A stretch of DNA of 64,000 bases from Oscillospiraceae bacterium (lineage in GTDB: Bacteria; Bacillota; Clostridia; Oscillospirales; Ruminococcaceae): positions 620,001 through 684,000 of the forward strand of contig WRLY01000001.1 of the NCBI GenBank assembly GCA_009776305.1, given 5' to 3'. This document shows positions 30,482 to 49,215 of the stretch, piece after piece. Within the stretch, counting starts at the first letter, position 1; each line of letters begins with the position of its first letter. The notes beneath the pieces are model-generated. The model saw only the letters and a program-made list of their open reading frames with translations. It did not search any database and was not told the DNA's origin. The translations under genes were made by a program, and so were the position numbers.

Positions 30482-31216
30482 CTATTTCAAAGCCGATTTG
30501 ACTATCCAGCCGATTTTGCCTCCGCAGTCTACTTTGATGTAAATAAGTCCGCAGACCCGGTCTCTTTTTTCACCGCCGGGTAAAACCTTAACCGTGTTGC
30601 CGGTTTCAATGACTTTTAATATTTGCGAGGACATTGAGGGTTGTTCACGCATTTTGGCGCTATAGGCTAAAACGCGCACGTCAACGTCTTTTGACGGGTT
30701 TTCCGGCTTTGGGGGAGACGGAGCAGAGCCTTTTAGGGATTTTGTTCCGATTATAAACGGCTCGGGGTCAATGCGTGAACTGCGGTCATTTTCATTTGTC
30801 CATATTTCAAAGTGAACGTGCGGGGCGGTTGACAAGCCGGTGCTGCCGATGATTCCGAGCTTTGCGCCTTTTTTCAGGTTATCGCCGATTTTTACGCACA
30901 GGCTTCGGAATTTTAAATGGCAATACTTTGAAATATAGCCGTTAGGATGCTTTAGCACAACATAGTTTCCGAGTGCGTCGGGACTGCTCCAGTTTTCTTT
31001 TACATTGACCGAGAGGGTTCGGTTAACATCGGCTTTTACTTTAATCACCCGTCCCTCTTCAATAGCTATGACCGCTTCTTCCGTACCGGTACCGGGAACT
31101 AAGTCGGCGCCATAATGGTTTAAGCCGTATTGAGGGTCCATAAACCCATAGGTTACTTTGGTTTTACCGTTGGCGAAAATGGGGTTTGTGCATTTAAGCT
31201 GAGTCATGTGAGACAT
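30482..31216 (-). CDS. leaderless M23 peptidase with C-terminal SH3 domain (lysin-like)
   Basis: M23 enzymes cut peptidoglycan cross-bridges. The 244-residue protein has an N-terminal LytM domain with zinc ligands in HYGADLV and HVHFEIW, a Pro-rich linker (SAPSPPKPENPSKD) and a bacterial SH3 domain (MREQPSMSSQILKVIETGNTVKVL). It has no signal peptide or transmembrane helix, so it would stay inside until released by lysis or a special export route. That fits a phage-type endolysin or a particle-borne muralytic enzyme better than a housekeeping hydrolase. It is the last gene of the minus-strand DUF2589 cassette, 87 bases after the previous gene. Confidence 0.85.
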   Translation of the reverse strand: MSHMTQLKCTNPIFANGKTKVTYGFMDPQYGLNHYGADLVPGTGTEEAVIAIEEGRVIKVKADVNRTLSVNVKENWSSPDALGNYVVLKHPNGYISKYCHLKFRSLCVKIGDNLKKGAKLGIIGSTGLSTAPHVHFEIWTNENDRSSRIDPEPFIIGTKSLKGSAPSPPKPENPSKDVDVRVLAYSAKMREQPSMSSQILKVIETGNTVKVLPGGEKRDRVCGLIYIKVDCGGKIGWIVKSALK

Positions 31217-31303
31217 TTAAAACATTGCTCCTTCCCGATACAAACGAACCATAAAGTATATTTCCTTCTCGCACTTGTTCTTTTTTCAAACTGTGAAGTC
31301 CTC

Positions 31304-32398
31304 CTAATTTTGTATCATGACCGAGTTGTATTCCGCTTTGTTGTCGCTTAATTTTTGACTGCTTTTTCTCCACTGTTTCATAGCTTCAATGGCGTTTGTG
31401 AATTCGATTTCCATAGGCGAAACGTCGGGAATGAATTTTTCTTCGCTCTTAGCGCCGTATATAGCCGTAAGTGTGGCAGAGGTTTCGGAACTCGGGTCGC
31501 CGTAAGCCGAAAGGTTATTAGCTATGCTCGAGTTGAAGTTTTTCCAGAAGTTGTCGTAGCTTTCCATTTCTTTAGTGATTTTCCCTCTTTTTTCATCGTT
31601 GGCATTTTTAGCGGCTTCGTCCGCGTCCTTTAGGTCAACGATTTGGTTTAATTCAGCCTGATAATCGCTCACCATTTTGTCGCGAGCATTTTTAGCTTTG
31701 TCGGTCAGAATGTTGCGTTTTAATTCATAGTTGCTTTGCGCCGAGCTTTCGGCGTCTTCGAGGCGGAAACGCTCTTCGCGTAGTAGTTTAAGCTTAGTGT
31801 TCTTTTCTTTTGCCTTGCCCTGAAGTTCTTTTCCGGAGGCGTCAACTGCCTTAGTGCTTACGACATTAGGGGCTACGGACGCCGCCATCATGTCGAGAAC
31901 CCTTGCCAAGCCTTCGGGGATTCCGTGGTTGGTGGCGCGAACATCTACGTGGTATTTAGCCGAGTTGTCGCTACTCCGTGTATTGGAACTGCTGGAGGCA
32001 ACGCTACCCTTGATTGATATGTTGAAAGGTCCGATTCTTGCCGAAGCGCTCATTTCGGCACTCATGTTGGTACTGCTTTCGGATTTTTCGCTGTTTTTTA
32101 CTTCCATGTCGAAAAGTATGTTTACTTCGTCGATTTGCAGATTCGGAATCGGCACGATGGCAAGCAGAGGAATATCAATCGCCATTTCGTTGTCGCTTAC
32201 GTTACCGTCGGGGTCGGGGGTTTTTTGGGTGTATTTGAATTTTACGGTTCTGGCGTTTTTGTTGCTGTCAAAACCTACCTCGTTTATAAAGCTTGCTGTA
32301 CTTTTGGCTAATATCACGCTGGATTCAGCTGCGGCTGATAAAGGACCTCCGATAAGATTTTTCATATCAAGTCCCGCAAATTGTTGACCTATACCCAT
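31304..32398 (-). CDS. DUF2589 family protein with coiled-coil C-terminus
   Basis: The 364-residue protein resembles DUF2589: an N-terminal Ala-rich amphipathic helix (GPLSAAAESSVILAKSTASFI), then a beta-rich domain (MAIDIPLLAIVPIPNLQIDEV and NILFDMEVK), then about 150 residues predicted as long charged coiled coil (LKLLREERFRLEDAESSAQ onward). No signal peptide or membrane segment is visible. DUF2589 has no established function. Its sister in the same cassette (33083-34351) shares the helix and the IPLLxIxPxxxLxIxxxxxxFDxE pattern. Ribosome binding site AAGGAGAAA. Confidence 0.75.
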   Translation of the reverse strand: MGIGQQFAGLDMKNLIGGPLSAAAESSVILAKSTASFINEVGFDSNKNARTVKFKYTQKTPDPDGNVSDNEMAIDIPLLAIVPIPNLQIDEVNILFDMEVKNSEKSESSTNMSAEMSASARIGPFNISIKGSVASSSSNTRSSDNSAKYHVDVRATNHGIPEGLARVLDMMAASVAPNVVSTKAVDASGKELQGKAKEKNTKLKLLREERFRLEDAESSAQSNYELKRNILTDKAKNARDKMVSDYQAELNQIVDLKDADEAAKNANDEKRGKITKEMESYDNFWKNFNSSIANNLSAYGDPSSETSATLTAIYGAKSEEKFIPDVSPMEIEFTNAIEAMKQWRKSSQKLSDNKAEYNSVMIQN

Positions 32399-32399
32399 T

Positions 32400-32804
32400 T
32401 TAAATTTCTCCTTTTGAATTTTTAAAATTATTTTTTATTTCGGCATGAAACGTGCCGTTTTCAAGGGGTGTTATTTCCACCTCGCAGGTGAAGCAATGCT
32501 TTCTTTTTCTGAAATCAAGCAAGACTTCGCCTATTTCTTGCGTATTGCTGTTTTTTCCCGCGGAAATTCGCGCGGAAAATACCGCTTTTACTTTTTTTAT
32601 CTGAAACGGTCGGCTTTGCGCTTCCCTGTTCTCCCTGATTTGTCCCACACTTTTTTGTGCGCGAAACGCACCGTTGCACGGAAAAGAGTTTGGGATTTCC
32701 CTGTCGGGGGATAAAAGTTTATCATTAGCTTCGACAGCCGATTGACCGAGAAGCTCGATAAATTTACCTAATTTTATTTTACCTGTGAGTTTAGTTGCGC
32801 GCAT
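32400..32804 (-). CDS. small cassette protein, DUF2589-like helix, carrying an in-frame palindromic element
   Basis: The start is the ATG at 32804 behind a perfect GAGGAGG; a TTG at 32819 lies within that Shine-Dalgarno. The 134-residue product begins with LGKFIELLGQSAVEANDKLL, which resembles the Ala-rich helix of its DUF2589 neighbours, and ends with a beta-rich part (VLLDFRKRKHCFTCEVEI). Between them, about 30 residues (DREIPNSFPCNGAFRAQKS onward) are encoded by a palindromic DNA element also present at 49252-49310. The gene may therefore be a small DUF2589 relative that tolerated an element insertion. Function unknown. Confidence 0.65.
   Translation of the reverse strand: MRATKLTGKIKLGKFIELLGQSAVEANDKLLSPDREIPNSFPCNGAFRAQKSVGQIRENREAQSRPFQIKKVKAVFSARISAGKNSNTQEIGEVLLDFRKRKHCFTCEVEITPLENGTFHAEIKNNFKNSKGEI
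32638..32700 (-). repeat. palindromic element, copy 2, inside a coding gene
   Basis: The segment matches 49252-49308 at roughly four of five positions. Shared blocks are TTGTCCC, TTTTTGTGC, CACCGTT, CACGG and AAAAGAG. The fold is kept: an outer stem (TCCCA with TGGGA), an inner hairpin GTGCG-CGAAA-CGCAC and a second hairpin CCGT-TGC-ACGG. It is read in frame in the host gene without a stop codon. A flanking AAAGCCGACCG block (minus strand) is also shared by both copies. Confidence 0.75.
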
Positions 32805-33090
32805 TTTTTTCCTCCTCAACGAGCCAAACCGGCTTTCGTGAAAAACCTATATGATATGTGGTTTTTTGCATGGTCAGCTCATGTTCACCGAGCATATATC
32901 TGCCGATGGAAATATCTTTGCCGATGATGAACCCTTTGGGGTAGTCGTTTAGACATTTGTTGAGCAACTTCGTCTGTGCCGCGCGGGTTTCGTCCGAAAT
33001 CAGTGCGTTTGGGTTTATGCTGCCAATGGAAACGTCTTTGATGAACCTTACCGATTGAATATCTGATTTTTTCGTGTTACTGTTATTCAT
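32791..33090 (-). CDS. small cassette protein of unknown function
   Basis: This 99-residue soluble protein contains two copies of a short motif, VRFIKDVSIGSINPN and GFIIGKDISIGRYML, around a helical segment, which suggests an internal duplication of a beta hairpin. No known family is recognised. It overlaps its upstream neighbour by 8 bases and its downstream neighbour by 14, so it is translated as part of the operon. Confidence 0.7.
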   Translation of the reverse strand: MNNSNTKKSDIQSVRFIKDVSIGSINPNALISDETRAAQTKLLNKCLNDYPKGFIIGKDISIGRYMLGEHELTMQKTTYHIGFSRKPVWLVEEEKNARN

Positions 33091-34351
33091 GGTTTTCTCG
33101 TGCTTCCTTTTCTTTATAATGTGGGCAGTTTTTTAAACGGCAGTTTTTCGGTACGCTGTGCGCTCCGCAGGAATCATTTTGGTGTGCCTTTGTTTCTTTT
33201 GAGGTGGGCTCTTCTTCGTCGGGGAAGTATTCCACGGTCGGGGAATCTTCGTCTTCGGAAAAATATCCGTCGGTTGATGAAGTTTCATCGTTAGGGAAAA
33301 AATCTTCGATTACAGGTTCACTGTCGTCTGAATTATCGGAAAAATATTCTTCATTTTGCGAATCTTCCGAATCTTCCGAATCTTCCGAATCTTCATTACG
33401 GGGTAAGTATTCTTCATAAAGTGAATTCTCGTTGTCTGAGGAATATTCCTCAGTTTGCGAATTTTCATCGTTGTAGTCGTTGGAGTGAAGGTAGTTTTCC
33501 TGTTCGCGGCTGATTTGGCTTATTCCGAGGGCGGTGATTTCTTCTCGTGTGGCGTTAAGTTCGCTTTCAAGGGCGCATATAGTTTGGTCATATTCCTGCA
33601 TGTTTTGGTAAATCTCGGGGATTTGGCAGGGTTCTTTTGAGTCCTCAATGTGCGCGCTGTATTCTTCATAATCCATCCCGGTTTCGGTTTTTAAGACATT
33701 ATTCTTGGCGCGGAAAATCTCGCTTGCTTTGGCAAGATTTTCGGCAAGTTCTCTTTCCCGATCTTTTAGGGACAGGAGGCGGTTATAATCCGTGAGATTT
33801 TCGCCTGTAAGCTTGCGTCCGCTGTCGTCAATGGGGTTGCTGTGAAGCTTTTTGGGTATCGCCTGGGCGTTCAGGGTGTCTATGAAACGAGCAAGTCCTT
33901 CGGGGATGTCTACGCTTTTGAGTTCTACCTCATAGCTTAAACGGGGGAAGAATGCCCCCTCGCGGTGATTCTTAGGGCTAACGCGGGTGAACAGCTTTGT
34001 ATCGTCTTCACCGTCCTGAACGCCTGTGATTTCAGCATCGAAAGAAACCTTGGTTTTTGAAATTTTAAGTCCGCTCGGCGGATAGATTGATAGTAGCGGT
34101 ATTTCAAGGCTGATACATTCAGATACGGGGTTGTCAAGAGCGTCGGAGCGGATTTGGTCATAAAGCATTTGAACAGTCCGTAGATGAACAACCGATTTGC
34201 CTGACGGGTCGTATTCAAGGTCGCCCGCACCGGATATAAAGTCCATTATACTCGCGCCGAGTCTTACGTTGGCTTCAGAAACAGCTTTCAGGGGGGCATA
34301 TACCAATTGGTTAAGTTCTATTGTGTTTTCGGGGAAATTCTTATTTTTCAT
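33083..34351 (-). CDS. DUF2589-like protein with acidic repeat tail and Cys/His end
   Basis: The 422-residue protein begins with a DUF2589-like helix (VYAPLKAVSEANVRLGASI) and beta domain (CISLEIPLLSIYPPSGLKIS, KVSFDAEI), then a coiled coil (about 185-280). A strongly acidic, Ser/Tyr/Phe-rich stretch (about 285-385) built from repeats like EEYFSDNSDDSE follows, including a run of SED triplets. The C-terminus CGAHSVPKNCRLKNCPHY could bind zinc. The acidic tail is probably disordered and may bind a basic or calcium partner; this is inference. Ribosome binding site AAGGAGAAC. Confidence 0.72.
   Translation of the reverse strand: MKNKNFPENTIELNQLVYAPLKAVSEANVRLGASIMDFISGAGDLEYDPSGKSVVHLRTVQMLYDQIRSDALDNPVSECISLEIPLLSIYPPSGLKISKTKVSFDAEITGVQDGEDDTKLFTRVSPKNHREGAFFPRLSYEVELKSVDIPEGLARFIDTLNAQAIPKKLHSNPIDDSGRKLTGENLTDYNRLLSLKDRERELAENLAKASEIFRAKNNVLKTETGMDYEEYSAHIEDSKEPCQIPEIYQNMQEYDQTICALESELNATREEITALGISQISREQENYLHSNDYNDENSQTEEYSSDNENSLYEEYLPRNEDSEDSEDSEDSQNEEYFSDNSDDSEPVIEDFFPNDETSSTDGYFSEDEDSPTVEYFPDEEEPTSKETKAHQNDSCGAHSVPKNCRLKNCPHYKEKEARENHE
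33360..33394. repeat. 9-bp tandem repeat encoding SED triplets
   Basis: GAATCTTCC is repeated nearly four times without interruption. On the minus strand it encodes the SED repeats in the acidic tail of the DUF2589-like protein. Such a repeat can change copy number by slippage in frame. Confidence 0.85.
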
Positions 34352-34377
34352 ATTCGTTCTCCTTAATAATTTTTGAT

Positions 34378-34815
34378 TCAGGACTTGGATTTGAGGTTAA
34401 ATCCGCAACGGCGGCATAATGGGTTTTGTTTATCGGGGGTTTTGCAGGTGAACCCCGATTCAGTTAAGGACAATTTGTCGGATTTCGGGTTTTTCTGAAA
34501 TTTTGACCTGAATGCGGCTACGGCTGAAACAATGGCGACTATGCCGATAATAATATTTGATGTATCTATTCCACCGCTGTTGACTACCTGACTCAATGTT
34601 TCTTCAATACGGATTACTTCCATCATGATTTCCGAGAAGGCTGAAATATGAGAATCAACTGAATGTGATTCATCGTAGCAATAAAGGTCGTTAATTTTGG
34701 AAAAAACTTCGGTAACGGTATCTTCAAAATCGTCAAGGTCGGGGGCAACGTCAAAGTTAGTCTCTTCTGTCTGCAATATGTCTTCTGAGCTTGAATATTC
34801 GTCACTGTTTTGCAT
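34378..34815 (-). CDS. small acidic membrane protein with Cys-rich C-terminus
   Basis: The 145-residue protein has an acidic N-terminus, one helix-forming middle region, a hydrophobic segment (SNIIIGIVAIVSAVAAF, about 85-101) and a C-terminal CKTPDKQNPLCRRCGFNL that looks like a minimal zinc ribbon. No family is recognised. Its ATG overlaps the stop codon of the upstream MalT-like regulator (TAATG), so translation is coupled. Possible role: membrane anchor or sensor for the regulator; unsupported beyond context. Confidence 0.65.
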   Translation of the reverse strand: MQNSDEYSSSEDILQTEETNFDVAPDLDDFEDTVTEVFSKINDLYCYDESHSVDSHISAFSEIMMEVIRIEETLSQVVNSGGIDTSNIIIGIVAIVSAVAAFRSKFQKNPKSDKLSLTESGFTCKTPDKQNPLCRRCGFNLKSKS

Positions 34816-37097
34816 TATATAAGTCCTTTCTCCTGCGCTTTAATTATGGCGTCGGCAGAATTTCTCACTTCAAGCTTTTCGTAAAGCTTTTTTATATGGT
34901 CTCGCACCGTCGTTATTTTAAGAGCGGTATCTTCGGCGATTTTATTATAGGTAAAGCCTTGGCTCAAAAATAACAGCATTTGTTTTTGCCTTTTTGAAAG
35001 GGACAGATTTTTGTCCGACAGGAAAATTCCGCCCGTGCGGTTTTTCTTGTTTTTTACATGCAGGAGTATCTTTTGGGACGGCTGTAAAATTTGCGTTTCT
35101 CCTGCGTGGGGTTTAGCTTTTTTCCTGGAGCGCCAGTAGCATTTTTCAATCAGGAATGATACGCCTGTTCCGAACCTTGCGATTGCCGCAGGCAGGTTTT
35201 CTTTTTCGGCAAGGGCTATGGCTTTTTCCATGTAGCGTACAGCTTTTGGTAATTGCTGTTTTTTCTGAAACGCCAGCGCGAAAAGTACAAGGCAGGTCGT
35301 TTCTATGCGGGGCAAATTTAAAGTTTCGGCAAAAGTGCATAAATCCTTTAGACGTATAATTGCCGTGTTTTCATCATCGTCCGCGATAAACGCCAACGCG
35401 TCGGTAATGCAGTCCTCGATGTTTGCGAAGCATATTTTCGGACTTACCGATTCGGCGCGTGATGACAGCCATTCTTTTGCCGCGGAAATATCGCCTTTCA
35501 GAATAAACAGCTCGGCTTGGAAACGCCTGAAAGCTTTGTAGTTTTGCGAGTTTTCGGGATTATCACAGCTTAGAACCCGTTTTTGAAAAGCCTGAGTTTC
35601 ACTGTCGGCTTGCCCGTAAGCGAAAAGCTCGCGCAATACATTGATTGAAAGGGTGAAATATGCGGGTTGAAGCTGATTATCGCATTTGTTTTTTATATCT
35701 TCTAAAATCGTAAACGCCTTTTCAAATTCCATGTTAAAATATAGTTCGCCGCACTTTACAAGGGCATCATGAACTGTTGAAGATTCGCTTGAAACGCCGG
35801 AGAAAATATGGGAATAAAGCCGTGTATTTTCATTTGGATATGGGCTTGTGAAAATATGGGTGTTTAAAATATTGCTTATATTAGGGAAATGCTTTCGGAA
35901 TACGGAAATATCATTCAGGCTTTTTATGTCGCCGTGGGCGGCGTTGTAAAGATTTATGAGAAATCCGGAGGCTTGTCCGGGGTTTTCTCCGGGTTTTTGC
36001 TGTAGTTTTTCAAGAGCGGGTAAAGAAAGACCAATCCCCTGTTCTAAGTGTTTTTGCAGAATTTCTTCGATTAAGCCGTATTGTGTTGAAGCCGAGGCGC
36101 ATGTAAGAGCCTCTGAATATTTTTGCATAGATAAGAGCTTTCGGCTTATTTCAGCGCAGACTTTTAAAGATTCTTCGGCGTTCACACGATGTGTTTTTTC
36201 AAGATATAATTTTAGCAAGCCGTGAAACGTAAAGGTTTCATACGATATATCAATAAGCCCCGTTGTGCGTGATAGTTCGTTTAACTGATTTAGCAGGGCT
36301 TCATTATCTTGCATGTTTTTTAAAATGCCAGCAGGTATATTTTCAAGAAACGCCAAGGCGGAGAGGGTTTTTACAGAATTTTCGGACAAGCTTCTCAGCG
36401 TTAAATAGTCAAGCGCGGCACAAAAGTGTTTGGGGAATTGCGATTCGTCATATAGTCCGCCGCCGTAAAGCGTTTCGGCAATAAAGCCGGCAGAACCGCA
36501 ACTTTGACGTGCGAGGCGCAGGGCGTTTGCGGTGCTTATATGTAATTTGTTATGCTCGGCTGATTTTTTGATTTCGGTTTGGCTGAAAGCTAAGTCTTTT
36601 GCAGTTATTTGTTTTATTTTTCCCCTGCATTGTTCTTCGTTAAATACGGCTGACAGAGATGTTCGGCTGATAATAATAAGCGATGTTTTTCCCGCGCATA
36701 AGCGATAGAAACTTTTTAAGGTTTCGGCGGCTTCTTCCGAGCGGCAAAGGTGAAAATCGTCTATTATAAACGCGTCGGGCATAGTAACTGACGACTCGCC
36801 TGAGACAAAGCCGCTTATTTTGTCAAGCAGACAGGCGGGGTCGCTTATAATGCCGCCTGAAGGTTTACGGTTAAATTCGAGAAGAAGACGTGTTATATGA
36901 TTTAAGAAAAAAGGCGGGCGGTTCATGAAAGGCTCGAAACGCAGATGCAAGTAATTATACTGCAAGGTTTCCATAGCGTCAATCACCGCAGTGGTTTTAC
37001 CGAAAAGGAGAGGGGCGGTAACCAAGATGATTTCATCTGTTTTTTTGGCACGCAGGAATTTTTGGGTAATGCGCCGACGGCTCAAAACAGTTATCAC
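34815..37097 (-). CDS. MalT/LuxR-type large ATP-binding transcriptional regulator
   Basis: The 760-residue STAND-type regulator has an N-terminal nucleotide-binding domain (P-loop-like APLLFGKTTAV, Walker B DAFIIDDFHLC), a middle helical repeat region (about 330-660) and a C-terminal LuxR helix-turn-helix (LSKRQKQMLLFLSQGFTYNKIAE, KITTVRDHIKKLYEKLEV). The P-loop lacks the usual first glycine (AxxxxGKT). Such activators oligomerise on ligand binding. The GTG start at 37097 follows AAAGGAGTG. It heads the minus-strand cassette and is the obvious candidate regulator of that cassette and perhaps of the divergent phage module. Confidence 0.88.
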   Translation of the reverse strand: MITVLSRRRITQKFLRAKKTDEIILVTAPLLFGKTTAVIDAMETLQYNYLHLRFEPFMNRPPFFLNHITRLLLEFNRKPSGGIISDPACLLDKISGFVSGESSVTMPDAFIIDDFHLCRSEEAAETLKSFYRLCAGKTSLIIISRTSLSAVFNEEQCRGKIKQITAKDLAFSQTEIKKSAEHNKLHISTANALRLARQSCGSAGFIAETLYGGGLYDESQFPKHFCAALDYLTLRSLSENSVKTLSALAFLENIPAGILKNMQDNEALLNQLNELSRTTGLIDISYETFTFHGLLKLYLEKTHRVNAEESLKVCAEISRKLLSMQKYSEALTCASASTQYGLIEEILQKHLEQGIGLSLPALEKLQQKPGENPGQASGFLINLYNAAHGDIKSLNDISVFRKHFPNISNILNTHIFTSPYPNENTRLYSHIFSGVSSESSTVHDALVKCGELYFNMEFEKAFTILEDIKNKCDNQLQPAYFTLSINVLRELFAYGQADSETQAFQKRVLSCDNPENSQNYKAFRRFQAELFILKGDISAAKEWLSSRAESVSPKICFANIEDCITDALAFIADDDENTAIIRLKDLCTFAETLNLPRIETTCLVLFALAFQKKQQLPKAVRYMEKAIALAEKENLPAAIARFGTGVSFLIEKCYWRSRKKAKPHAGETQILQPSQKILLHVKNKKNRTGGIFLSDKNLSLSKRQKQMLLFLSQGFTYNKIAEDTALKITTVRDHIKKLYEKLEVRNSADAIIKAQEKGLI

Positions 37098-37593: not shown

Positions 37594-37884
37594 ATGAGAA
37601 AGACAGAAGCCGACTCAAAAAAAGAAGCTTACTCAAAAGCGCGCACTACAACCCTTTCCGCATATTTCGCCGAAAACAGAGGGAAAATCCTCGATTTCGG
37701 CGATTACTTTTTAGAAAAGCTTTCGGACAGGGAGTTGCTTGACAATTTAGCTGAAAAGGATTTGGAAAAGTTAGCGCGAATATTTAAGCTGATGTTTGAC
37801 AAAAGCTTTGCCGGAGAGGAAAAAGCCGAAAAGGAGCAAAACCGTGTATTGGAGGAAATTCTGGGGATTTTTAAAAATCATTAA
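37594..37884 (+). CDS. putative small terminase subunit
   Basis: This 96-residue, charged, helical protein lies 14 bases before the large terminase. Position and size fit a small terminase subunit, but the sequence itself is not diagnostic and no clear DNA-binding helix-turn-helix is seen; the N-terminus is Lys-rich (RKTEADSKKEAYSKAR). The ribosome binding site is GGGAGG. It is the first gene of the phage-type module. Confidence 0.55.
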   Translation: MRKTEADSKKEAYSKARTTTLSAYFAENRGKILDFGDYFLEKLSDRELLDNLAEKDLEKLARIFKLMFDKSFAGEEKAEKEQNRVLEEILGIFKNH

Positions 37885-37898
37885 AGGGGTGGGCGTTA

Positions 37899-39173: not shown

Positions 39174-39266
39174 TTTATAATAATCCCCCTTTAAAGTAAC
39201 GATATATTTTCAGTCTTTTTGTCGCCATTTTTAAAGGGGATTAGTATTAAAACGAAAGGAAATTTT

Positions 39267-41143: not shown

Positions 41144-42034
41144 ATGGCAATTAACACGATTGAATACGGCTCGGTATTTCAAAAAGAATTAGACAAACAG
41201 GTTTTAGAGGGCGCGACTTCCGGCTGGATGGAGGAAAATGCGGGACAGGTGATTTATAACGGAGGCAAGGAAATAAAATTACCTATCGTTTCTACCCAGG
41301 GGCTTGCGGATTATGACCGTGATACAGGTTATTCTGCAGGGGCGGTTACTTTCACCTACGAAACCTATAAAATGGAACAGGACAGAGGCAGACGTTTCAG
41401 ATTGGACGCAATTGACGTTGACGAAACGGCGTTCGCGCTGTCTGCTGCTAATGTGGCGGGAGAATTTCAGCGCACCCGCGTTATACCTGAAGTTGACGCA
41501 TACAGATACTCAAAATTGGCGGCGCTTGCAGAAATCAAAAGCGAGTATGTCCCCGACGCCGACGATATACTATCGGAGCTTACGGCGGGGATTAGCAACG
41601 TTATGGACATAACCGGCGGCGAGGGCGAAATAGTGGTGATTATATCACGACCTGTCTATGATGTTCTGCTTTCTTCTAACGAAATTCTCAAAACCATTGA
41701 ATTCGGGAGCTTTACACAAGGAGAGGTTGATTTTGAGGTCAGATACCTTAACGGCGCATGTCTTATTCCGGTGCCGAGCGCGAGAATGAAAACGGCTTAT
41801 AATTTCCTCAGCGGCAACGACGGAGGTTTTACGCCCGCTAACACCGCTAAGGATATAAACTGGATTATCTGTCCTAAAAATGCGCCGATTGCCGTTTCCA
41901 AGACGGATAATGTAAAAATCATCCCTCCTGAAAGCAATCAGTTTGCTGATGCGTGGGATATAGATTACAGGAAATATCATGATTTATTCCTGCCGAAAAA
42001 CAAGCGGGAAGTTGTATCGGTAAGCACAAGGTAG
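41144..42034 (+). CDS. phage major capsid protein
   Basis: The 296-residue protein is of the HK97-fold type common in Gram-positive siphophages without a cleaved delta domain. Typical segments are an N-terminal arm (YGSVFQKELDKQVLEGATSG), the E-loop and beta region (GGKEIKLPIVSTQGLADYD, GYSAGAVTFTYETYKMEQDR) and P-domain helices (VIPEVDAYRYSKLAALA). It follows a long non-coding leader and has a strong GAAAGGA, fitting the need for high expression. Confidence 0.85.
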   Translation: MAINTIEYGSVFQKELDKQVLEGATSGWMEENAGQVIYNGGKEIKLPIVSTQGLADYDRDTGYSAGAVTFTYETYKMEQDRGRRFRLDAIDVDETAFALSAANVAGEFQRTRVIPEVDAYRYSKLAALAEIKSEYVPDADDILSELTAGISNVMDITGGEGEIVVIISRPVYDVLLSSNEILKTIEFGSFTQGEVDFEVRYLNGACLIPVPSARMKTAYNFLSGNDGGFTPANTAKDINWIICPKNAPIAVSKTDNVKIIPPESNQFADAWDIDYRKYHDLFLPKNKREVVSVSTR

Positions 42035-42049
42035 AGGCGCTTTGTTGCA

Positions 42050-42070: not shown

Positions 42071-42094
42071 AAGCATTTAGAAAGGACTGACAAC

Positions 42095-42460
42095 ATGATT
42101 GCAGACATTGATTATTATAACAGCCAAGGCTTTGATAATCCTGCGGGAGACGACAAGTTGCTCGAAAAAGCCCTTGCGCGGGCAGAAAGGTTAATTGACC
42201 TTATTACGGGGGGGAAATGCAACGAATATGACGCTTTGTCTGAGCAGGCGCGAGACAGGTTAAGATACGCTGTCAGCGCGCAGGCGGAGAATTATCTCAT
42301 AAACGGATTCGATAACGGCGGGGCGATTGACCATAAGGTAAAGATAGGCGATTTCTCCTATGAAAGCAGAAATAACGGCATAATCCAAAGCGTATCTCCC
42401 GTGGCAATGGCATCGCTAAAGCTTTCGGGACTTCTTTACGCGGGAACGGAGGTCAGGTAG
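42095..42460 (+). CDS. head-tail connector (gp6-like adaptor)
   Basis: The 121-residue helical protein (LLEKALARAERLIDLITGG, RLRYAVSAQAENYLI) resembles the gp6/gp15 connector family that docks under the portal. It follows the capsid gene as expected. Its stop is one base before a small coupled open frame. Confidence 0.7.
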   Translation: MIADIDYYNSQGFDNPAGDDKLLEKALARAERLIDLITGGKCNEYDALSEQARDRLRYAVSAQAENYLINGFDNGGAIDHKVKIGDFSYESRNNGIIQSVSPVAMASLKLSGLLYAGTEVR

Positions 42461-42461
42461 C

Positions 42462-42539
42462 TTGAAAAATAAAACAAGCGTAAGAGGAAAAATATTCCGC
42501 GACTGGTTGGTGTCGGGAAAGGAAGGGGATTTAAAGTGA
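42462..42539 (+). CDS. 25-residue coupled small open frame in the phage module
   Basis: A TTG start at 42462 sits 7 bases after GGAGGT and one base after the stop of the connector gene. The 25-residue basic product (KNKTSVRGKIFRDWLV core) ends with a TGA that overlaps the GTG of the next gene (GTGA). Both junctions look coupled, which supports translation, but coding capacity is too short for certainty. It may serve mainly to couple translation. Confidence 0.45.
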   Translation: MKNKTSVRGKIFRDWLVSGKEGDLK

Positions 42540-42874
42540 ACTTATCAAGACCTATTCCTAAAGCTCTGCTCCCGCATAACGCCATACTCAGAACTCCTCG
42601 TAGCGGAGGAATATTCGCCGACGGGGCGTATGATGAAACCTCCCTTTATAATGTCCGTATAGAGCAAAATGAAAAAATCCGTCAAGGCAATGCAGGGGAA
42701 ATAAGAACAAGAGGCGCATCGCTCTATTATGACAGGGTAAATTCAAGCCCCTGCGGGGTTGAGTTTAAATCGGAGCAACTCATACTTTTTGGCGGCGAAA
42801 TTTATAAAATCGAGGCGGTCAAGACCGTTATGGCGGCGGCACATATTCACCATTACAGAATAGAAATGGTTTAA
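42536..42874 (+). CDS. putative minor capsid/neck protein (Minor_capsid_1-like)
   Basis: The 112-residue protein resembles the first of three small minor-capsid families found in order in A118-like phages: IPKALLPHNAILRTP at the N-terminus and LILFGGEIYKIEAVKTV at the C-terminus. It probably acts as a stopper or head-completion protein. The GTG start overlaps the previous stop codon. Confidence 0.72.
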   Translation: MNLSRPIPKALLPHNAILRTPRSGGIFADGAYDETSLYNVRIEQNEKIRQGNAGEIRTRGASLYYDRVNSSPCGVEFKSEQLILFGGEIYKIEAVKTVMAAAHIHHYRIEMV

Positions 42875-42891
42875 GTCGGAGGTTTAAAATT

Positions 42892-43233: not shown

Positions 43234-43249
43234 AAGGAGGGAGTTAAAA

Positions 43250-43681: not shown

Positions 43682-43702
43682 AACGCAGAAAGGAAAAGAA
43701 AA

Positions 43703-44134
43703 ATGTTAGAGTTAAACAACCAAATAACCGCCGAACTTGACGTCACCCCTAAAGGTGCGTCGCGCAAATGGGAAAGCCTCGGCAAGGCGTTTAAGAGCGT
43801 AACCCAGACGTTGGGGGAGAACGTTTATACTGCAAGCTACCTGTCAGACGGCGGGTTTTCGTCAAGCGAGGTGACAGGTTTAAATTTCACCGTAACTTTC
43901 AAAGGGGATTACATAAGAGATGACCCTGTTATTAAGTACATTTTTTCAAGAGATGTGCTTTACGGTGTGGGCGACGCGAGAAAGACAAAATTAAGATTGA
44001 TTAAAGGCACGAGGACTGTCGTTTGGAACGTTACCATGACCAAAATTCAAGAAACGGGCGGCGACGCCAACGAGCCTAACAGCGTAGTACTGGAGCTTAA
44101 AGGCGCGGGCAGACCCGAGGATACGGGGAATTAA
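43703..44134 (+). CDS. phage major tail (tube) protein
   Basis: The 143-residue beta-rich protein (NNQITAELDVTPKGASRKW, GLNFTVTFKGDYIRDD, TVVWNVTMTKIQETGG) matches small siphophage tail-tube proteins in size and position. Its stop overlaps the next start by one base (TAATG). Confidence 0.75.
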   Translation: MLELNNQITAELDVTPKGASRKWESLGKAFKSVTQTLGENVYTASYLSDGGFSSSEVTGLNFTVTFKGDYIRDDPVIKYIFSRDVLYGVGDARKTKLRLIKGTRTVVWNVTMTKIQETGGDANEPNSVVLELKGAGRPEDTGN

Positions 44135-44586
44135 TGAGGGTTAAACTTTCAATAAAAGCGGACGATTTAAATGCTCCGCTTAATGGAAACCTACCGCCTG
44201 CAGAGGCGGGGAAACTTGCTTCCGATAGTTCGCCGGTTAAAAAAATCCGCCTGAAACTCGGAAAAGAAAAAATAAAAAAAGAAATAACCGGGGAGCAAGC
44301 CCAAAACCTCCTCGGTAGGCTTTATGAAGACTTAGAGGCAATTTCTTTTTCAGTTCAATCGGGCGAGAATTCGGAATCAGACGCGGGCTACGCGGCTGTC
44401 AATATGTTTTTGGAGCTTTTCGGGAAGAAACTTACGGAGAAATTATTGCTTTTATGTAAAGAAAATCCCGAAAGCTCCGAAAGAATCATGAAAAAGCTTA
44501 AACGCGTTATAAAGTGTGGCTTATATCCTTTGGCAAAGCGGCAAAGAAGACTCGAGGACAGACGGGGAGTGAAGAAGTATTTATGA
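44134..44586 (+). CDS. tail assembly chaperone, first component (gp14-like)
   Basis: The 150-residue protein has a beta-rich N-terminus and a helical C-terminus, and occupies the place of the tail chaperone that coats the tape measure during assembly. Its last 73 bases are also open in the next-gene frame (one base back), the same geometry as the lambda G/G-T pair. It overlaps the following ATG (ATGA). Confidence 0.65.
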   Translation: MRVKLSIKADDLNAPLNGNLPPAEAGKLASDSSPVKKIRLKLGKEKIKKEITGEQAQNLLGRLYEDLEAISFSVQSGENSESDAGYAAVNMFLELFGKKLTEKLLLLCKENPESSERIMKKLKRVIKCGLYPLAKRQRRLEDRRGVKKYL

Positions 44587-45134
44587 GGCTTGGCTTTTCA
44601 TTTGAAAAACATGTTAGTTTAACGCCGTTGTCGGAGGTGCATTTTTTCGGAGCTTTTAAGATTAACGCCGATTTCAGGAATGTAATACGGGCAGTGGAAT
44701 TATTAAAAGACAGTAGCATTTCCGAAAGAATGCGGGTAAACGCCGCGCTGAAACTCTTACTAAAACCTATGGCGTTTCGTCGCGCCCGCTTACTTAGTTT
44801 TGGGGGAAGAACGGCGCTGTTAAATCGAATTTTCAAGGTGTTAAATCCGGATTCGGGCGAAAAAAAAGAAACCACCGGTACTAAACGAGTACTTTCCCTT
44901 ATAAAAGACGGCGGATTAATTTACGGCGCTTTTTTACAGGCTTACGGGCTTGACCTTAACAAAAAAGGGTTGGACTGGCGAACATTTTGCAGCCTGCTTT
45001 GCTGTATCCCCGAAGGCACGGCTTTGTTCAACGTGATGAAAAACAGAACGGAAAACACGGAAATCACCCAAGACATAGACGACGGGCTTGAAATCCTGTT
45101 TAATAAGTTATCGGGAGGAGAAACAAATGGCTGA
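44583..45134 (+). CDS. tail assembly chaperone, second component (bacteriophage Gp15 family)
   Basis: The 183-residue protein resembles the Gp15 family of A118-like phages, with the signature GAFLQAYGLDLNKKGLDWRTFCSLLCCIPEGTALFNVM. The ATG at 44583 overlaps the previous stop; the frame is open upstream to 44514. It sits directly before the tape measure, which it should coat together with the previous gene product. Confidence 0.78.
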   Translation: MRLGFSFEKHVSLTPLSEVHFFGAFKINADFRNVIRAVELLKDSSISERMRVNAALKLLLKPMAFRRARLLSFGGRTALLNRIFKVLNPDSGEKKETTGTKRVLSLIKDGGLIYGAFLQAYGLDLNKKGLDWRTFCSLLCCIPEGTALFNVMKNRTENTEITQDIDDGLEILFNKLSGGETNG

Positions 45135-45834
45135 CGGCAGTATTGTTTATGAAGTGCGGGTTGACAGCAGTAATGTGGACGGAGACCTTGCACGGGCGGG
45201 CGGCTTGCTCGAAAAAGGCACTAAAGAAATACACCAACTTGCGGCGGGCGTTTCGCTGAACTTCGGGAAGATGCTGGGAGATGTTTTTGGGAAAAGCGCC
45301 GATTATGCAGAAGGGGCGGTTTCAAGGCTCGGCGCGGGCTTTGAAAAACTGAAAAACGCGGCGGCACCTCTATTAAATGCTTTGGCGCCCGTTTCGAGAG
45401 AGCTTTTGAACATATCTAACTTAAACCTGCCGAATTTAGGTGAGGTTACGGGCAAAGCCGCCCCTGCTTCAACGCCCAAATCTACAGAAACGCCTGCGAA
45501 AACATCGATTTTATCAAGACTTTTGCCCTCTTTTGCCGTGGGTACTGAATACATACCCTACGATGATTTTCCCGCGCTTTTGCATAAGGGCGAGGCGGTG
45601 CTTACCGCCTCTGAAAACGCCGCATTTCAAGCGGCGGGAGGAGCTGCGGCGCTTAACAAAGGCGCGGTGCAATCGGAGGCGTTCAAAAACGACATGAACA
45701 GGGCGGATTTAAATGAATTTGACAGAAGACCGGTCGAGGTAACATTAAGAATTGGCGACCATGAATTCACCCAAATTATTGCCGATACCATGAATAATCT
45801 TTACAGGCAGTGGGGGAAAAATCCTCTCAGGTAG
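45127..45834 (+). CDS. miniature tape measure protein
   Basis: The 235-residue protein keeps both ends of a siphophage tape measure: the N-terminal SIVYEVRVDSSNVDGDLAR block and the C-terminal FAVGTEYIPYDDFPALLHKG plus EAVLTASENAAF motif. The central helical rod and membrane segments, normally many hundreds of residues, are replaced by about 90 residues with an Ala/Pro/Thr linker. Tail length scales with this protein at about 1.5 angstrom per residue, so at most about 35 nm is implied. The start at 45127 follows GGGAGGAG; it overlaps the previous gene by 8 bases. Confidence 0.82.
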   Translation: MADGSIVYEVRVDSSNVDGDLARAGGLLEKGTKEIHQLAAGVSLNFGKMLGDVFGKSADYAEGAVSRLGAGFEKLKNAAAPLLNALAPVSRELLNISNLNLPNLGEVTGKAAPASTPKSTETPAKTSILSRLLPSFAVGTEYIPYDDFPALLHKGEAVLTASENAAFQAAGGAAALNKGAVQSEAFKNDMNRADLNEFDRRPVEVTLRIGDHEFTQIIADTMNNLYRQWGKNPLR

Positions 45835-45847
45835 AAAGGAATAAAAA

Positions 45848-46195
45848 GTGAATATATCTTTTAACGGCTACAGGCTTCCGGGCGTTATTTCCTGCTCGGT
45901 AAAGCGGGTAACCCGCAACACCAGAACCGAATATAACGCCGAGGGTGATATGCTCATCGACCTTGTGAGCAGAAAGCATATTCTTATCATTCATCTTGGC
46001 GGGCTTTCGGCGGAGGAGTTGCGAAAAATTTTTGCCGTAACCGACGACATTTTCTTTACGGTAAGCTTTCAAAGTCCCGTAATCGGGCAAATGAGCGCCG
46101 AGTTCCACATGAAAGAGCAGACCGCCGAAACCGATTTCGTATTTCAGGGAATAACTTATTATAAAGCGTTAAAGCTTGTTTTAGAAGAGCGTTAA
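45848..46195 (+). CDS. putative distal tail component
   Basis: The 115-residue beta-rich protein (ISFNGYRLPGVISCSVKRVT, FFTVSFQSPVIGQMSAEF) lies between tape measure and hub, where small distal-tail or hub-adaptor proteins occur. It is shorter than typical Dit proteins. GTG start behind AGAAAGGA. Confidence 0.6.
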   Translation: MNISFNGYRLPGVISCSVKRVTRNTRTEYNAEGDMLIDLVSRKHILIIHLGGLSAEELRKIFAVTDDIFFTVSFQSPVIGQMSAEFHMKEQTAETDFVFQGITYYKALKLVLEER

Positions 46196-46226
46196 GTCGC
46201 TTGCTGTGAAAGGAGTGAATAACATA

Positions 46227-47819
46227 ATGATTGAAGTTTCGCCGGACTTTATGGAAAAATCGCTTAGTCCCGGGCGGGATGTGCAGTGCGTAATATTGGC
46301 GGGGGGACATGCTTACGACGACAAGGATATTCTGTCGTTTGAGTTTAACGATGTGGTGCATCCTGAAGACATGAGTTTCGGGACGACCTGTGCCAACCGC
46401 TTTCATTTTGAGCTGTGGAGTCGTCGCAACATCCCGTTGTCGGCGGTTATATCCCCTTATGTGGCTTTTACGAAAGATGCCTCCGGAGCTGTTACGGAGT
46501 TTCGTCTGCTCGGCGAATTTTATATTTCGCGGCGCTACCGTAAAAGGGAGCGGTACAGTATAACCTGCTACGACAAAATGTTTCGTCTTGATGCGAGATA
46601 CCGCCCGACGGTTAATTTCCCTTGCACTACCGCCGAGCTTCTTTCTGACATAGCTGAACAGCACGATTTTAAGGTAGGGTTTGCGACGGCGAACGATGTG
46701 GTGGAATCAGTCCCCAAGCTTGCCACCTGCCGCGAGGTTATCGGTTATATCGCGGGGATTAACGGCGGGTTTGCAAAGTTTGACCGTACCTCGGTTTTAA
46801 GGTTAAGGAAGCTTGAATTATGCGACTTTTTGCTTAATCGAAGCCAATATACGTCGCTGTCCCTTAAAGCTGATAAGCTTGAAGTCAGGCAGATTGAGTT
46901 TATGAACGAGGATGAAACGTTTTCAGAAGGGAAAGGGACTAAGCTCACCACCTACCGTCAGCATAACCCGTTCGCGGGGAAAGACGCGGCAAAGCGGGTG
47001 TTTGACCAATGGAACGGCTTTACCTATTTCGGAATGACGGTAAAAATGCAGGGTTTGCCTTTTTTGGAGTCGGGTTTCAGCATTTTGGTTCAAGACGATT
47101 TTGAGAACATATATTATGTGGCGTTAATAAGCGATTACACCCTTGAATATGACGGGGCTTTAAGAGCCACGTTAGTGTCAAAATCCAAAAACCCCATAGA
47201 CGACTACGAAGAGCCAATGACGCAACAAAGACTTATGGAAAGCCTCAGCCAAAGTCTTCGCATGCGTTATTATAATTTCATAAACGAAAGGATTGTAACG
47301 ATTTCACAATCGGCGCTTTCGATTATAAGCATAAACTTTAGTCTTGAAACAAGCTCGGTTGTTGTTTTTAATTCGCAGTTTACCGTAACGGCGAATACAG
47401 ACGCTGTTTTGACGCTGAATTATTACGTAAATAATATCAACGTCGGACAACAGCCGAGGACAAACCTGTCAGCGAACAAGCCTTTAAGCGTCAGTCTTTA
47501 TAATTGCTTTGAAAGAGCGCGGACGGGAAGAAATACCCTTTCGGTTACGGCAAGTATAAGCGCGGGAAATGCGGTTATTGAGCAGGGACAATTAATAGCC
47601 ACCGTCAGCGGGCAGTATATGCTTGGCGACGCGAAACCGCAAATACCCGAAATCAATATTTCAGAGGCTATGACGAAACACGCAATAAGTGCGTTAAACC
47701 TGCGGGCGGTGGAACTTTCGGAAACCCTCGGAATCCCGCCTGTGCCGGACACTAAAGTCGTTATTGACGATTATTTTGAAAAACTCTCGATATCGGGAAT
47801 AAATCTGTCGCTGAAATAA
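46227..47819 (+). CDS. tail hub/baseplate protein with C-terminal beta domains
   Basis: The start is ATG 46227, 12 bases after AAAGGAG; a GTG at 46206 lacks a ribosome binding site. The first 330 residues look like a gp27-type tail hub (RLLGEFYISRRYRKRERYSI, CYDKMFRLDARYRPTV, STAELLSDIAEQH-like segment). The remaining 200 residues are predicted beta-sandwich (LETSSVVVFNSQFTVTANTD, TLNYYVNNINVG) and end in a helical part. No peptidase or lysozyme motif was recognised, so cell-wall penetration would need another protein. Confidence 0.72.
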   Translation: MIEVSPDFMEKSLSPGRDVQCVILAGGHAYDDKDILSFEFNDVVHPEDMSFGTTCANRFHFELWSRRNIPLSAVISPYVAFTKDASGAVTEFRLLGEFYISRRYRKRERYSITCYDKMFRLDARYRPTVNFPCTTAELLSDIAEQHDFKVGFATANDVVESVPKLATCREVIGYIAGINGGFAKFDRTSVLRLRKLELCDFLLNRSQYTSLSLKADKLEVRQIEFMNEDETFSEGKGTKLTTYRQHNPFAGKDAAKRVFDQWNGFTYFGMTVKMQGLPFLESGFSILVQDDFENIYYVALISDYTLEYDGALRATLVSKSKNPIDDYEEPMTQQRLMESLSQSLRMRYYNFINERIVTISQSALSIISINFSLETSSVVVFNSQFTVTANTDAVLTLNYYVNNINVGQQPRTNLSANKPLSVSLYNCFERARTGRNTLSVTASISAGNAVIEQGQLIATVSGQYMLGDAKPQIPEINISEAMTKHAISALNLRAVELSETLGIPPVPDTKVVIDDYFEKLSISGINLSLK

Positions 47820-47829
47820 TTCATAAAAA

Positions 47830-47871
47830 GCCGTTCCAATAGAAAATCGGCACTCTTTCTATTGGGACGGC
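47830..47871 (+). terminator. 16-bp hairpin between hub and fibre genes
   Basis: GCCGTTCCAATAGAAA pairs with TTTCTATTGGGACGGC (one G-U) over a 10-base loop that includes TCGGCACTC. Only ATTT follows, so termination may be partial; it could reduce fibre expression relative to structural genes. Confidence 0.65.
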
Positions 47872-47895
47872 ATTTAAAACAAACAGGAGGAAATT

Positions 47896-49215
47896 ATGCT
47901 AAAAGGAAAAACAAAAATAGAGCTTTTCGACGCCGCAACCGGAGAAAAGGTAGCAGAGCGGGTTGACCAAAACTTAGTTACAAACGCGATAAAAAACATG
48001 TTAGGTTTTGGCTCGGAATTACTTATGTCGGGGGTCAACCTTTCGGGTATGCTGAACAGCATGACCCCGCTTTACCCGACTTTCCTGCGCGGGGTACTGC
48101 TTTGGGACAGTGCAATACCCGAAAATCCTGATATTATTTTTGCGCCGCCGGGCGTTAAATGCGTAGGTCACGCAGGCGGGGGTTATTCAGGAGCAAAGAC
48201 GACTCGTGGGACGTTGAATTTAAACGAAACGCAGGTTTTAGAAAACGGCGTAAGGATGGTCTGGGACTTCCCCACGGACAAGGCAAACGGCAGTATAAGA
48301 GCCGTTTCGCTTACGTCCGTTATGGGCGGGGATATGGGCTGGTTTACCGAAGCCGAAAGCGGCAACTCTTTTCAATTAAGTATCGCGAGCGGCAGTTTTG
48401 GAACACAAACCATCCGTAATACGCCAAACTCCTCAATATATGTAGGAGAGCTGAGACGGGGGGTGCAAACTTATGTTTCCAACCTTGGCGGCGGACAGCT
48501 CGGAGTGATTGAGCAAACCTTTGCCAACCCCCGTCAAATCGGGATTCTCGACAAAGCCGGAAATCTTCACCACGACCACGCAACCGAAACATTGTTCACG
48601 ATTCAGACAGATACGGATTTTATGAGTTTTTCAGGAACTTCCCTCGTAGACGAAAACAATATTTTTTCATCTGTGCGATTGACAAACAACAGAAATGTGA
48701 GGGTAATATCAATCGACCTGATTAGCAAAACAATAGTCGGAGACATAAGTTTTACGCTAAGTGAAAATGTAAACAACCTCTCTCACGCTTTTTGGAAAAA
48801 TCATCTTTATTGCAGTTCAACCGCAAGGGGGGGAATTTGCAAATTCAACACCGACGGGCAGTTTGTGGAAAGGGTGTTGAATTCCACAACCACTTCCAGA
48901 TTTTCCCGCTTCGATAAATATTTATACGTCAGGGTTGACAGTATCGGGCACCCTCCCTCTTTTTTGACTGACGGGGAAAATCACTTTTTAATCCCGTTTG
49001 CAAACACCGGCAGCCCTACGCAGTACTTCTCGGGAACATCAAGCTTTAAACCGCCCCTTTTTGTCAATCATCGCGACATTGTCGGAAACGGTAGTAACAA
49101 CCCGCTTATACAATACGTCACGCCTTATTTGGCGACCATAAACAACCTTTCGTCGCCGGTATCGAAAAACAGCCTGAATACAATGAAAGTTACTTATGAA
49201 TTAACGCAGGAGTAG
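47896..49215 (+). CDS. putative tail fibre / receptor-binding-like protein
   Basis: The 439-residue protein starts with a conserved attachment-like segment (KTKIELFDAATGEKVAERVD followed by NLVTNAIKNML), a Gly-rich middle (GHAGGGYSGAKTTRGTLNL) and a C-terminal region with repeated beta-propeller-like strands (VRVISIDLISKTIVGDI, FWKNHLYCSS, KYLYVRVDS). It is the last gene of the module and is the likely target-binding component. No host-range family can be named. Ribosome binding site AGGAGG. Confidence 0.68.
   Translation: MLKGKTKIELFDAATGEKVAERVDQNLVTNAIKNMLGFGSELLMSGVNLSGMLNSMTPLYPTFLRGVLLWDSAIPENPDIIFAPPGVKCVGHAGGGYSGAKTTRGTLNLNETQVLENGVRMVWDFPTDKANGSIRAVSLTSVMGGDMGWFTEAESGNSFQLSIASGSFGTQTIRNTPNSSIYVGELRRGVQTYVSNLGGGQLGVIEQTFANPRQIGILDKAGNLHHDHATETLFTIQTDTDFMSFSGTSLVDENNIFSSVRLTNNRNVRVISIDLISKTIVGDISFTLSENVNNLSHAFWKNHLYCSSTARGGICKFNTDGQFVERVLNSTTTSRFSRFDKYLYVRVDSIGHPPSFLTDGENHFLIPFANTGSPTQYFSGTSSFKPPLFVNHRDIVGNGSNNPLIQYVTPYLATINNLSSPVSKNSLNTMKVTYELTQE

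What the first reader, a model, noticed from the sequence alone, without database searches (positions are those of the whole stretch)
30482..49215. Candidate domesticated phage-like particle system with its own MalT-type regulator and DUF2589/lysin cassette
The sequence shows a complete set of siphophage head and tail genes in A118-like order, with intact packaging ATPase and nuclease motifs. It has no integrase, excisionase, repressor, replication gene, head protease or holin, and no attachment-site repeats that I could see. Directly across a 496-bp gap is a tightly overlapping minus-strand cassette: a MalT/LuxR regulator, two DUF2589 proteins, small proteins and a leaderless M23/SH3 lysin. 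Loss of infection and lysogeny genes with retention of packaging and structure is the pattern of gene transfer agents and other domesticated particles. Linking the two blocks into one system is inference.
Basis: partly seen in the sequence, partly recalled or inferred. Interest (0 to 1): 0.78.

Follow-up and report, generated by a model that had tools for sequence, protein, structure and literature searches.

The report
Domesticated phage-like gene transfer particle
A gut bacterium carries an 11.6-kb set of phage head, tail and DNA-packaging genes that its relatives seem to inherit like ordinary chromosomal genes, which suggests a gene transfer agent rather than an infectious phage; the neighbouring regulator and lysin cassette looks like a later insertion.

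Summary
The structural module is real and intact: 16 genes at 37594-49215, from candidate TerS and TerL to a fibre, with a very short tape measure (248 aa); no integrase, replication or lysis gene was found in it.

Capsid relatives at 58-89% identity were kept from 42 named Oscillospiraceae/Clostridia MAG loci; on the capsid tree they lie apart from prophages (100/100). In 33 of them a reduced cassette stands without TerL beside it; 28 of 33 share flanking housekeeping genes. TerL (58-64%) lies elsewhere in 31 of 34 genomes of this subgroup, with a TerS-like gene directly before it in 20 of 20 loci examined; a tail tube relative was found in one of the 34, in a likely prophage.

Best explanation: a domesticated, mostly vertically inherited DNA-packaging particle of gene-transfer-agent type. 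Particles, packaging and transfer are not shown. Nearest published system: FpGTA of Faecalibacterium (2026); homology to it was not tested.

The MalT/DUF2589/M23 cassette is probably unrelated: in G054, G027 and G023 the window's upstream PadR genes adjoin TerS without it.

Against: patchy distribution, an empty site, broken copies, an integrase near the module in G020, some tree conflicts; low dN/dS and distance correlation also occur in control prophages.

The parts
28638..29424 (+). PadR regulator and partner protein: left flank of the module's shared site, not part of the particle
   Evidence: PF03551 E 7e-18; homologs just upstream of TerS in G054, G027 and G023
29520..37097 (.). WYL regulator (+) and MalT/DUF2589/M23 cassette (-): judged a lineage-specific insertion, NOT part of the module
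   Evidence: families; absent between PadR partner and TerS in G054, G027, G023
37594..37884 (+). candidate small terminase (TerS), 96 aa
   Evidence: relatives before TerL in 7 of 43 named loci and in 20 of 20 separate TerL loci; helical model, pLDDT 66, no PDB match of meaning
37899..39173 (+). large terminase TerL
   Evidence: phrog_2 E 2e-45; Walker A and B and three acidic nuclease residues conserved (motif labels recalled)
39219..40661 (+). portal protein
   Evidence: phrog_533 E 1e-96, SPP1_portal E 2e-15
40621..40956 (+). scaffold-like protein
   Evidence: position between portal and capsid gene; no confident family match; conserved in close relatives; function inferred
41144..42034 (+). 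major capsid protein
   Evidence: phrog_422 E 5e-98
42095..42460 (+). head-tail adaptor
   Evidence: phrog_541 E 2e-14
42536..42874 (+). minor capsid protein / head-tail connector
   Evidence: phrog_793 E 2e-13, PF10665
42892..43233 (+). minor capsid protein
   Evidence: phrog_556 E 1e-21, PF11114
43250..43681 (+). minor head / tail-completion protein
   Evidence: phrog_913 E 7e-5; role inferred
43703..44134 (+). major tail tube protein
   Evidence: phrog_820 E 9e-25
44134..44586 (+). tail assembly chaperone candidate 1
   Evidence: no confident PHROG match; position and overlap; one fused ORF in L142; inferred
44514..45134 (+). tail assembly chaperone candidate 2
   Evidence: phrog_706 E 3e-22, unknown function; inferred
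45088..45834 (+). short tape measure protein, 248 aa
   Evidence: C-terminal match to tape-measure profile phrog_1535 E 4e-5; 230-253 aa in the 6 named loci where found
45848..46195 (+). distal-tail-like protein
   Evidence: phrog_1194 E 1e-7, unknown function; found in 40 of 43 named loci; role inferred
46206..47819 (+). tail hub protein
   Evidence: phrog_6616 (tail protein) E 2e-29
47896..49215 (+). fibre / adhesin candidate with predicted beta-propeller
   Evidence: phrog_19291 E 8e-39, unknown function; model pLDDT 78.5, propeller-type PDB matches

Best explanation
Genes 37594-49215 encode a domesticated phage particle of gene-transfer-agent type that is a mostly vertically inherited part of the host chromosome. 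Proposed mechanism: under host control some cells make small heads with short tails; TerS/TerL pack host DNA without preference for the module; the cells lyse with enzymes encoded elsewhere; the propeller fibre binds related cells and DNA is delivered. Shown here: intact genes, conserved TerL motifs, low dN/dS, agreement of the main clades with rpoB, shared chromosomal sites, and, in a sister lineage, loss of tail genes and separation of TerS-TerL from the capsid genes. Inferred: particle formation, random packaging, lysis, delivery, regulation. The MalT/DUF2589/M23 cassette is read as a later insertion beside it.
For: Module genes in the same order in congeners where contigs allow. Capsid relatives at 58-89% in 42 of the 80 named loci kept, all MAGs titled Oscillospiraceae, Ruminococcaceae, Ruminiclostridium or Clostridia/Clostridiales; best phage records 47.9% (capsid) and 46.5% (TerL). 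Capsid tree: 45 rows of the group apart from 24 prophages at 100/100, reduced subgroup 98/90; rpoB tree: reduced subgroup 100/100. Capsid identity above rpoB identity: 0 of 703 pairs in the group, 2 of 253 in prophages. Reduced subgroup: TerL beside the capsid cassette in 0 of 33 loci, 24 of which hold over 8 kb upstream, yet TerL at 58-64% elsewhere in 31 of 34 genomes, with a TerS-like ORF directly before it in 20 of 20 loci fetched. Of 33 capsid loci 21 carry the left gene set, 22 the right, 15 both, 5 neither, orientation not required. PadR genes adjoin TerS in G054, G027, G023. Median dN/dS: TerL 0.075 (8 pairs), portal 0.09 (16), tail 0.14 (4), tube 0.073 (3); capsid 0.062 (54 group pairs).
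Against: No particle, packaging or transfer was observed. Patchy distribution: capsid matches at E <= 1e-120 in 10 of 396 family genomes, 3 of 126 genera. Site empty in G046; module cut by a serine recombinase in G023; viral-collection copies L142 and L144 interrupted. G020 has a phage-type integrase about 5 kb from TerS. Tree conflicts: G149 and G113 sit in different places in the capsid and rpoB trees. Controls that do not discriminate: distance correlation 0.83 in the group, 0.75 in prophages; capsid dN/dS even lower in prophages (0.016, 8 pairs); the +/-10 kb integrase scan rings in only 2 of 37 control loci. The window's downstream flank and both G020 flanks differ from other close relatives. 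No lysis gene in the window module.
Confidence: 0.75

Rival explanations
1. Cryptic, decaying prophage: the structural half of a temperate siphophage left after loss of integration and replication genes, without function.
For: No integration or lysis genes found in the module; empty site in G046, interrupted copies in G023, L142 and L144; integrase near the G020 copy.
Against: All 16 window genes are open; low dN/dS between species; TerL motifs kept where TerL stands apart from the capsid genes; shared flanking genes in 28 of 33 reduced loci.
Confidence: 0.12
2. Phage-derived killing particle (PBSX-like): particles bind and kill relatives, and packaged DNA is incidental.
For: The fibre is among the fast-changing parts (22-48% identity to the window), as expected of a target-specific weapon; PBSX is the other Gram-positive GTA-like system named in PMC12946183 (passages).
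Against: TerL and portal stay under selection in genomes without a detected tail tube, which suggests that packaging matters; no toxin or lysin seen in the module.
Confidence: 0.15
3. One reading: the MalT regulator and DUF2589/M23 cassette control and release the particles.
For: Adjacent in the window (496 bp). An ATPase/peptidase system, LypABC, is needed for release of Caulobacter GTA (PMC13236601, abstract and outline only), so such coupling is possible in principle.
Against: No cassette protein matched in 18 module-region loci of 10 congeners, several on short contigs; PadR genes adjoin TerS without it in G054, G027, G023; DUF2589 in 7 of 99 genomes, the module in 4 of these 7 (window, G027, G035, G054), in the latter three on other contigs.
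Confidence: 0.06
4. Satellite-like mobile element that depends on a helper phage.
For: Patchy distribution.
Against: It carries its own capsid and terminase, and no integrase, primase or repressor was seen among the module genes; reduced loci share chromosomal neighbours.
Confidence: 0.03

Closest known systems
FpGTA of Faecalibacterium (PMC12946183; abstract, passages, sections 9 and 26 read)
   Same: Gram-positive gut anaerobe; operon with possible TerS, TerL, portal, scaffold, major capsid protein; no replication genes; two loci, about 125 kb apart in one complete genome
   Different: FpGTA is described as most likely podovirus-like, with fibre, holin and endolysin in operon II; the window has one 11.6-kb operon that also holds tail tube and short tape measure, and in sister species TerS-TerL is the separated part.
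RcGTA-type GTAs (PMC9662315, passages only)
   Same: Phage-derived structural cluster, vertical inheritance, often several loci
   Different: Different host class; no sequence comparison made
A118/SPP1-like siphophages and prophages
   Same: Protein families: SPP1-type portal, phrog_422 capsid, PF10665 and PF11114 minor capsid proteins
   Different: Capsid at most 47.9% identical to any record of the phage collection; tape measure 248 aa against 1071 aa in the G091 prophage; no lysogeny, replication or lysis genes found in the module
PBSX of Bacillus subtilis
   Same: Named as a GTA-like element in PMC12946183 (passages)
   Different: Not compared by sequence

Membership tests
Gene transfer agent (attributes in PMC9662315, section 3, seen as passages) | Produces tailed-phage-like particles | not testable with these tools
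   Genes for head, portal, tail and fibre are open; no particle observed
Gene transfer agent (attributes in PMC9662315, section 3, seen as passages) | Packages mostly random host DNA | not testable with these tools
   TerL motifs conserved; needs sequencing of packaged DNA
Gene transfer agent (attributes in PMC9662315, section 3, seen as passages) | Fully endogenized in host genome, often across several loci | tested here: met
   No PF00589 match on the window's 743-kb contig; TerS-TerL apart from the capsid cassette in the reduced subgroup; shared flanks. Caveat: G020 integrase about 5 kb away
Gene transfer agent (attributes in PMC9662315, section 3, seen as passages) | Genome cannot be fully packaged | not testable with these tools
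   Head size unknown
Gene transfer agent (attributes in PMC9662315, section 3, seen as passages) | Mostly vertical inheritance, co-diversification with host | tested here: met
   Main clades agree between capsid and rpoB trees; 0 of 703 pairs with capsid identity above rpoB. Caveats: G149 and G113 conflict; distance correlation is high in control prophages too
Gene transfer agent (attributes in PMC9662315, section 3, seen as passages) | Delivers DNA to other cells | not testable with these tools
   Needs a transfer assay
FpGTA | Sequence homology of TerL and capsid protein to FpGTA I | not tested
Active temperate prophage | Integrase, replication, lysis genes and attachment sites with the structural genes | tested here: not met
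   Not found with the window module; the M23 peptidase at 30482 lies in the separate cassette; caveat: G020 integrase

The most novel reading that the evidence does not exclude
One bacterial family preserves a series of gene transfer agents: a tailed one-operon form (the window), a contiguous tail-less form with its own holin (g253, L372), and a tail-less form whose TerS-TerL pair sits at a separate chromosomal locus. The window lineage would be the tailed, ancestral-type stage, and the reduced lineages would still package and deliver DNA without a tail tube.
Probability: 0.4. Interest if true: 0.85.

Novelty: new variant of a known kind. Interest (0 to 1): 0.7.

Why it matters
Few gene transfer agents are known outside Alphaproteobacteria, and PMC12946183 (January 2026) calls FpGTA the first found in the human gut microbiome. 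Further lineages in uncultured gut and termite-gut Clostridia, with graded loss of tail genes and a displaced terminase pair, would let the domestication of a phage into a host-controlled DNA-transfer system be followed step by step, and would add a route of gene exchange among gut anaerobes.

Tried and rejected
Cassette linkage: rejected. DUF2589 literature: one paper holds the word (listing only). Distance correlation as proof of vertical inheritance: control prophages also correlate. Low capsid dN/dS as proof of domestication: control prophages are lower still; the capsid median mixed group and prophage pairs. Integrase scan within +/-10 kb: self-built profiles ring in only 2 of 37 control prophage loci, so absence is weak evidence; all 67 genomes hold a PF00589 match somewhere, but the listing was cut off and distances to the module were not measured. 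TerS fold: low confidence, one PDB match at E 8.8, none meaningful. Tail tube elsewhere in reduced genomes: one match in 34, 40% in G116, on the contig of a 41% TerL copy, read as a prophage. Holin search: 18 of 44 genomes ring; the only match on a contig known to me to hold module genes is G117. A split in G054 between portal and scaffold genes was considered and left open because contigs end there. Papers: searches; among the listed results only PMC12946183 reports, by what I saw, a GTA in this bacterial group. Library limit: open-licence PMC papers. One paper search was left unused.
Full report
WHAT IS THERE. The window lies on a 743-kb contig of a 1.54-Mb, 71% complete genome. At 37594-49215 on the plus strand are 16 open genes: candidate TerS, TerL, portal, scaffold-like protein, major capsid protein, adaptor and minor capsid proteins, tail tube, two chaperone candidates, a 248-aa tape measure, a distal-tail-like protein, a tail hub and a fibre candidate. 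The upstream minus-strand cassette 30482-37097 has a MalT/LuxR regulator, two DUF2589 proteins and an M23 peptidase. Self-built profiles found no recombinase in the window, PF00589 has no match on its contig, there is no tRNA in the window and no repeat that brackets the module. Base composition does not stand out.

RELATIVES. Of 60 genomes of the window's genus among the 99 searched (own included), 11 hold a capsid relative of 60% identity or more; others in the genus hold weaker ones (23-42%). Where contigs allow, their loci hold the module genes in the same order. A scan of named species genomes gave 113 relatives, the best 80 kept: 42 loci at 58-89%, all MAGs titled Oscillospiraceae, Ruminococcaceae, Ruminiclostridium or Clostridia/Clostridiales, and 38 at 48-56% that include Paenibacillus, Anaerotignum and other genomes, which I use as prophage controls. 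One of the 38, L117, falls with the reduced subgroup in the tree. In IMG/VR 223 relatives were found and 80 kept: 4 at 82% or more, the rest at 55% or less. In 50,697 phage records the best capsid match is 47.9% and the best TerL match 46.5%. G091, in the same order, has a 53% capsid in what reads as an ordinary prophage with a 1071-aa tape measure.

TWO FORMS. In the first form, as in the window, the module genes stand together. In the second (33 loci) portal, capsid, adaptors, distal-tail-like protein, tail protein and fibre lie within about 7 kb (fibre recognised in 21 of 33). No TerL matched beside it in any of the 33; 24 of the 33 hold more than 8 kb upstream of the capsid gene, the other 9 are cut by contig ends. 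The whole genomes hold TerL at 58-64% identity elsewhere in 31 of 34 (in pieces in two); of the other three, G120 has a 47% copy, G135 a 25% match and G152 none. In 20 TerL loci fetched (of these 31), a TerS-like ORF lies just before TerL in 20 of 20. I annotated three of the 20 by eye: the other neighbours read as housekeeping or unknown genes. In G122 both loci lie on one contig, judged by equal contig length, about 70 kb apart. A tail tube relative occurs in 1 of these 34 genomes, G116, where it looks like a prophage gene; a diverged tube cannot be excluded. A third arrangement, G117 (L069; L372 from G601), keeps TerS to fibre together without a detected tube or tape measure and adds a holin (PF05105 E 1e-36).

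POSITION. Of the 33 reduced loci, 21 carry a left gene set (oxidoreductase, ispH, cmk), 22 a right set (ybeY, dgkA and a third protein), 15 both and 5 neither; orientation was not required and gene names are recalled from the sequences. The window's upstream genes (PadR and partner) lie just before TerS in G054, G027 and G023; similar genes lie near TerL in 3 of 20 reduced TerL loci. In G046 the PadR partner is followed after about 40 bp by a methyltransferase that is 80% identical to the one beside the fibre in G027: an empty site; that methyltransferase is not in the window. In G023 TerS and TerL are open and the portal gene is cut short next to a large serine recombinase. The window's downstream neighbour 49327-49884 also lies downstream of the module in G020, in another orientation.

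INHERITANCE AND SELECTION. Capsid and rpoB trees agree on the main clades: the group apart from the controls, the reduced subgroup (98/90 and 100/100), the window clade, and G035/G133/G134/G141. They disagree for G149 (capsid with the window clade, 94/82; rpoB with G117, 93/78; long branches) and for G113 within the reduced subgroup. Controls disagree too, for example G514 (with G513 by capsid, with G494/G495 by rpoB). The order among the main clades is not resolved, so that the tailed form is ancestral is inferred from the tailed prophage relatives. Eight genomes of the capsid set lack a usable rpoB. Capsid identity exceeds rpoB identity in 0 of 703 pairs, against 2 of 253 in prophages. Distance correlation is 0.83 (38 genomes) but 0.75 in 23 control genomes. 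In 16 reduced genomes TerL, though at another locus, correlates with the capsid (0.70) and with rpoB (0.60). Median dN/dS by gene is 0.07-0.14; for the capsid 0.062 in 54 group pairs and 0.016 in 8 prophage pairs, so it shows constraint but does not tell a GTA from a phage. TerL Walker motifs and three acidic nuclease residues are conserved in at least 95% of 31 rows, one of them a prophage (motif labels recalled).

CASSETTE. None of the seven cassette proteins matched in the 20 loci (18 from 10 congeners, 2 from G091). DUF2589 was found in 7 of 99 genomes, the window's included; four of the seven hold the module (window, G027, G035, G054), the latter three on other contigs, and no module gene lies near those DUF2589 genes. 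In G054 a DUF2589 gene, and in G027 a weak DUF2589 match, stand near an Amidase_2 gene. One IMG/VR contig encodes a 45% relative of the window's DUF2589 protein (L375, ORFs listed). The 8 kb between 29424 and 37594 is best read as an insertion in the window lineage.

MODELS. The fibre model (pLDDT 78.5) matches beta-propeller structures. The TerS model is helical, of low confidence and without a meaningful PDB match.

KNOWN SYSTEMS. PMC12946183 (abstract, passages, sections 9 and 26 read) reports GTA-like packaging in Ruminococcaceae and Oscillospiraceae and describes FpGTA: two operons about 125 kb apart in one genome, particles of about 40 nm, 8.4-8.9 kb DNA. The window system resembles it in kind and in the TerS-TerL-portal-scaffold-capsid set; homology was not tested. 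Of the GTA attributes in PMC9662315 (passages), endogenization and vertical inheritance are met here; particles, random packaging, packaging limit and delivery could not be tested.

VERDICT. A probable new gene-transfer-agent lineage with an unusual evolutionary series; function unproven; the cassette is probably unrelated.

Noticed in passing
L343 4575-13019, L344, L345 (genus g52 of another family in the same order): A second compact phage cassette (TerL, scaffold, capsid, P22-like portal, adaptor, nozzle-like protein) between housekeeping genes, with shared flanking genes in L343 and L345; possibly another domesticated, podovirus-like particle.
   Followed up: partly
window 30482-37097; L355 8814-11928; L357 10150-10929: DUF2589 genes or matches near wall hydrolases at unrelated loci (M23 in the window, Amidase_2 in G054 and G027): a possible separate DUF2589/hydrolase system.
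   Followed up: partly
L375 5561-6537: On an IMG/VR contig a DUF2589 relative is followed by a small protein that by eye resembles the window's 32791-33090 product, so the two may be a conserved pair.
   Followed up: no
L142, L144, L365: Copies of the module interrupted or cut short next to large serine recombinases, with relaxase-like genes in L142 and L144 (labels recalled), so the module is broken in some lineages.
   Followed up: partly
L048 17515-18472 (G005): Tandem near-identical ORFs between module genes of G005, apparently a repeated intergenic element.
   Followed up: no
L044 3615-4628 (G020): Phage-type tyrosine recombinase about 5 kb from TerS in G020, with host-like genes between; unexplained.
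   Followed up: no
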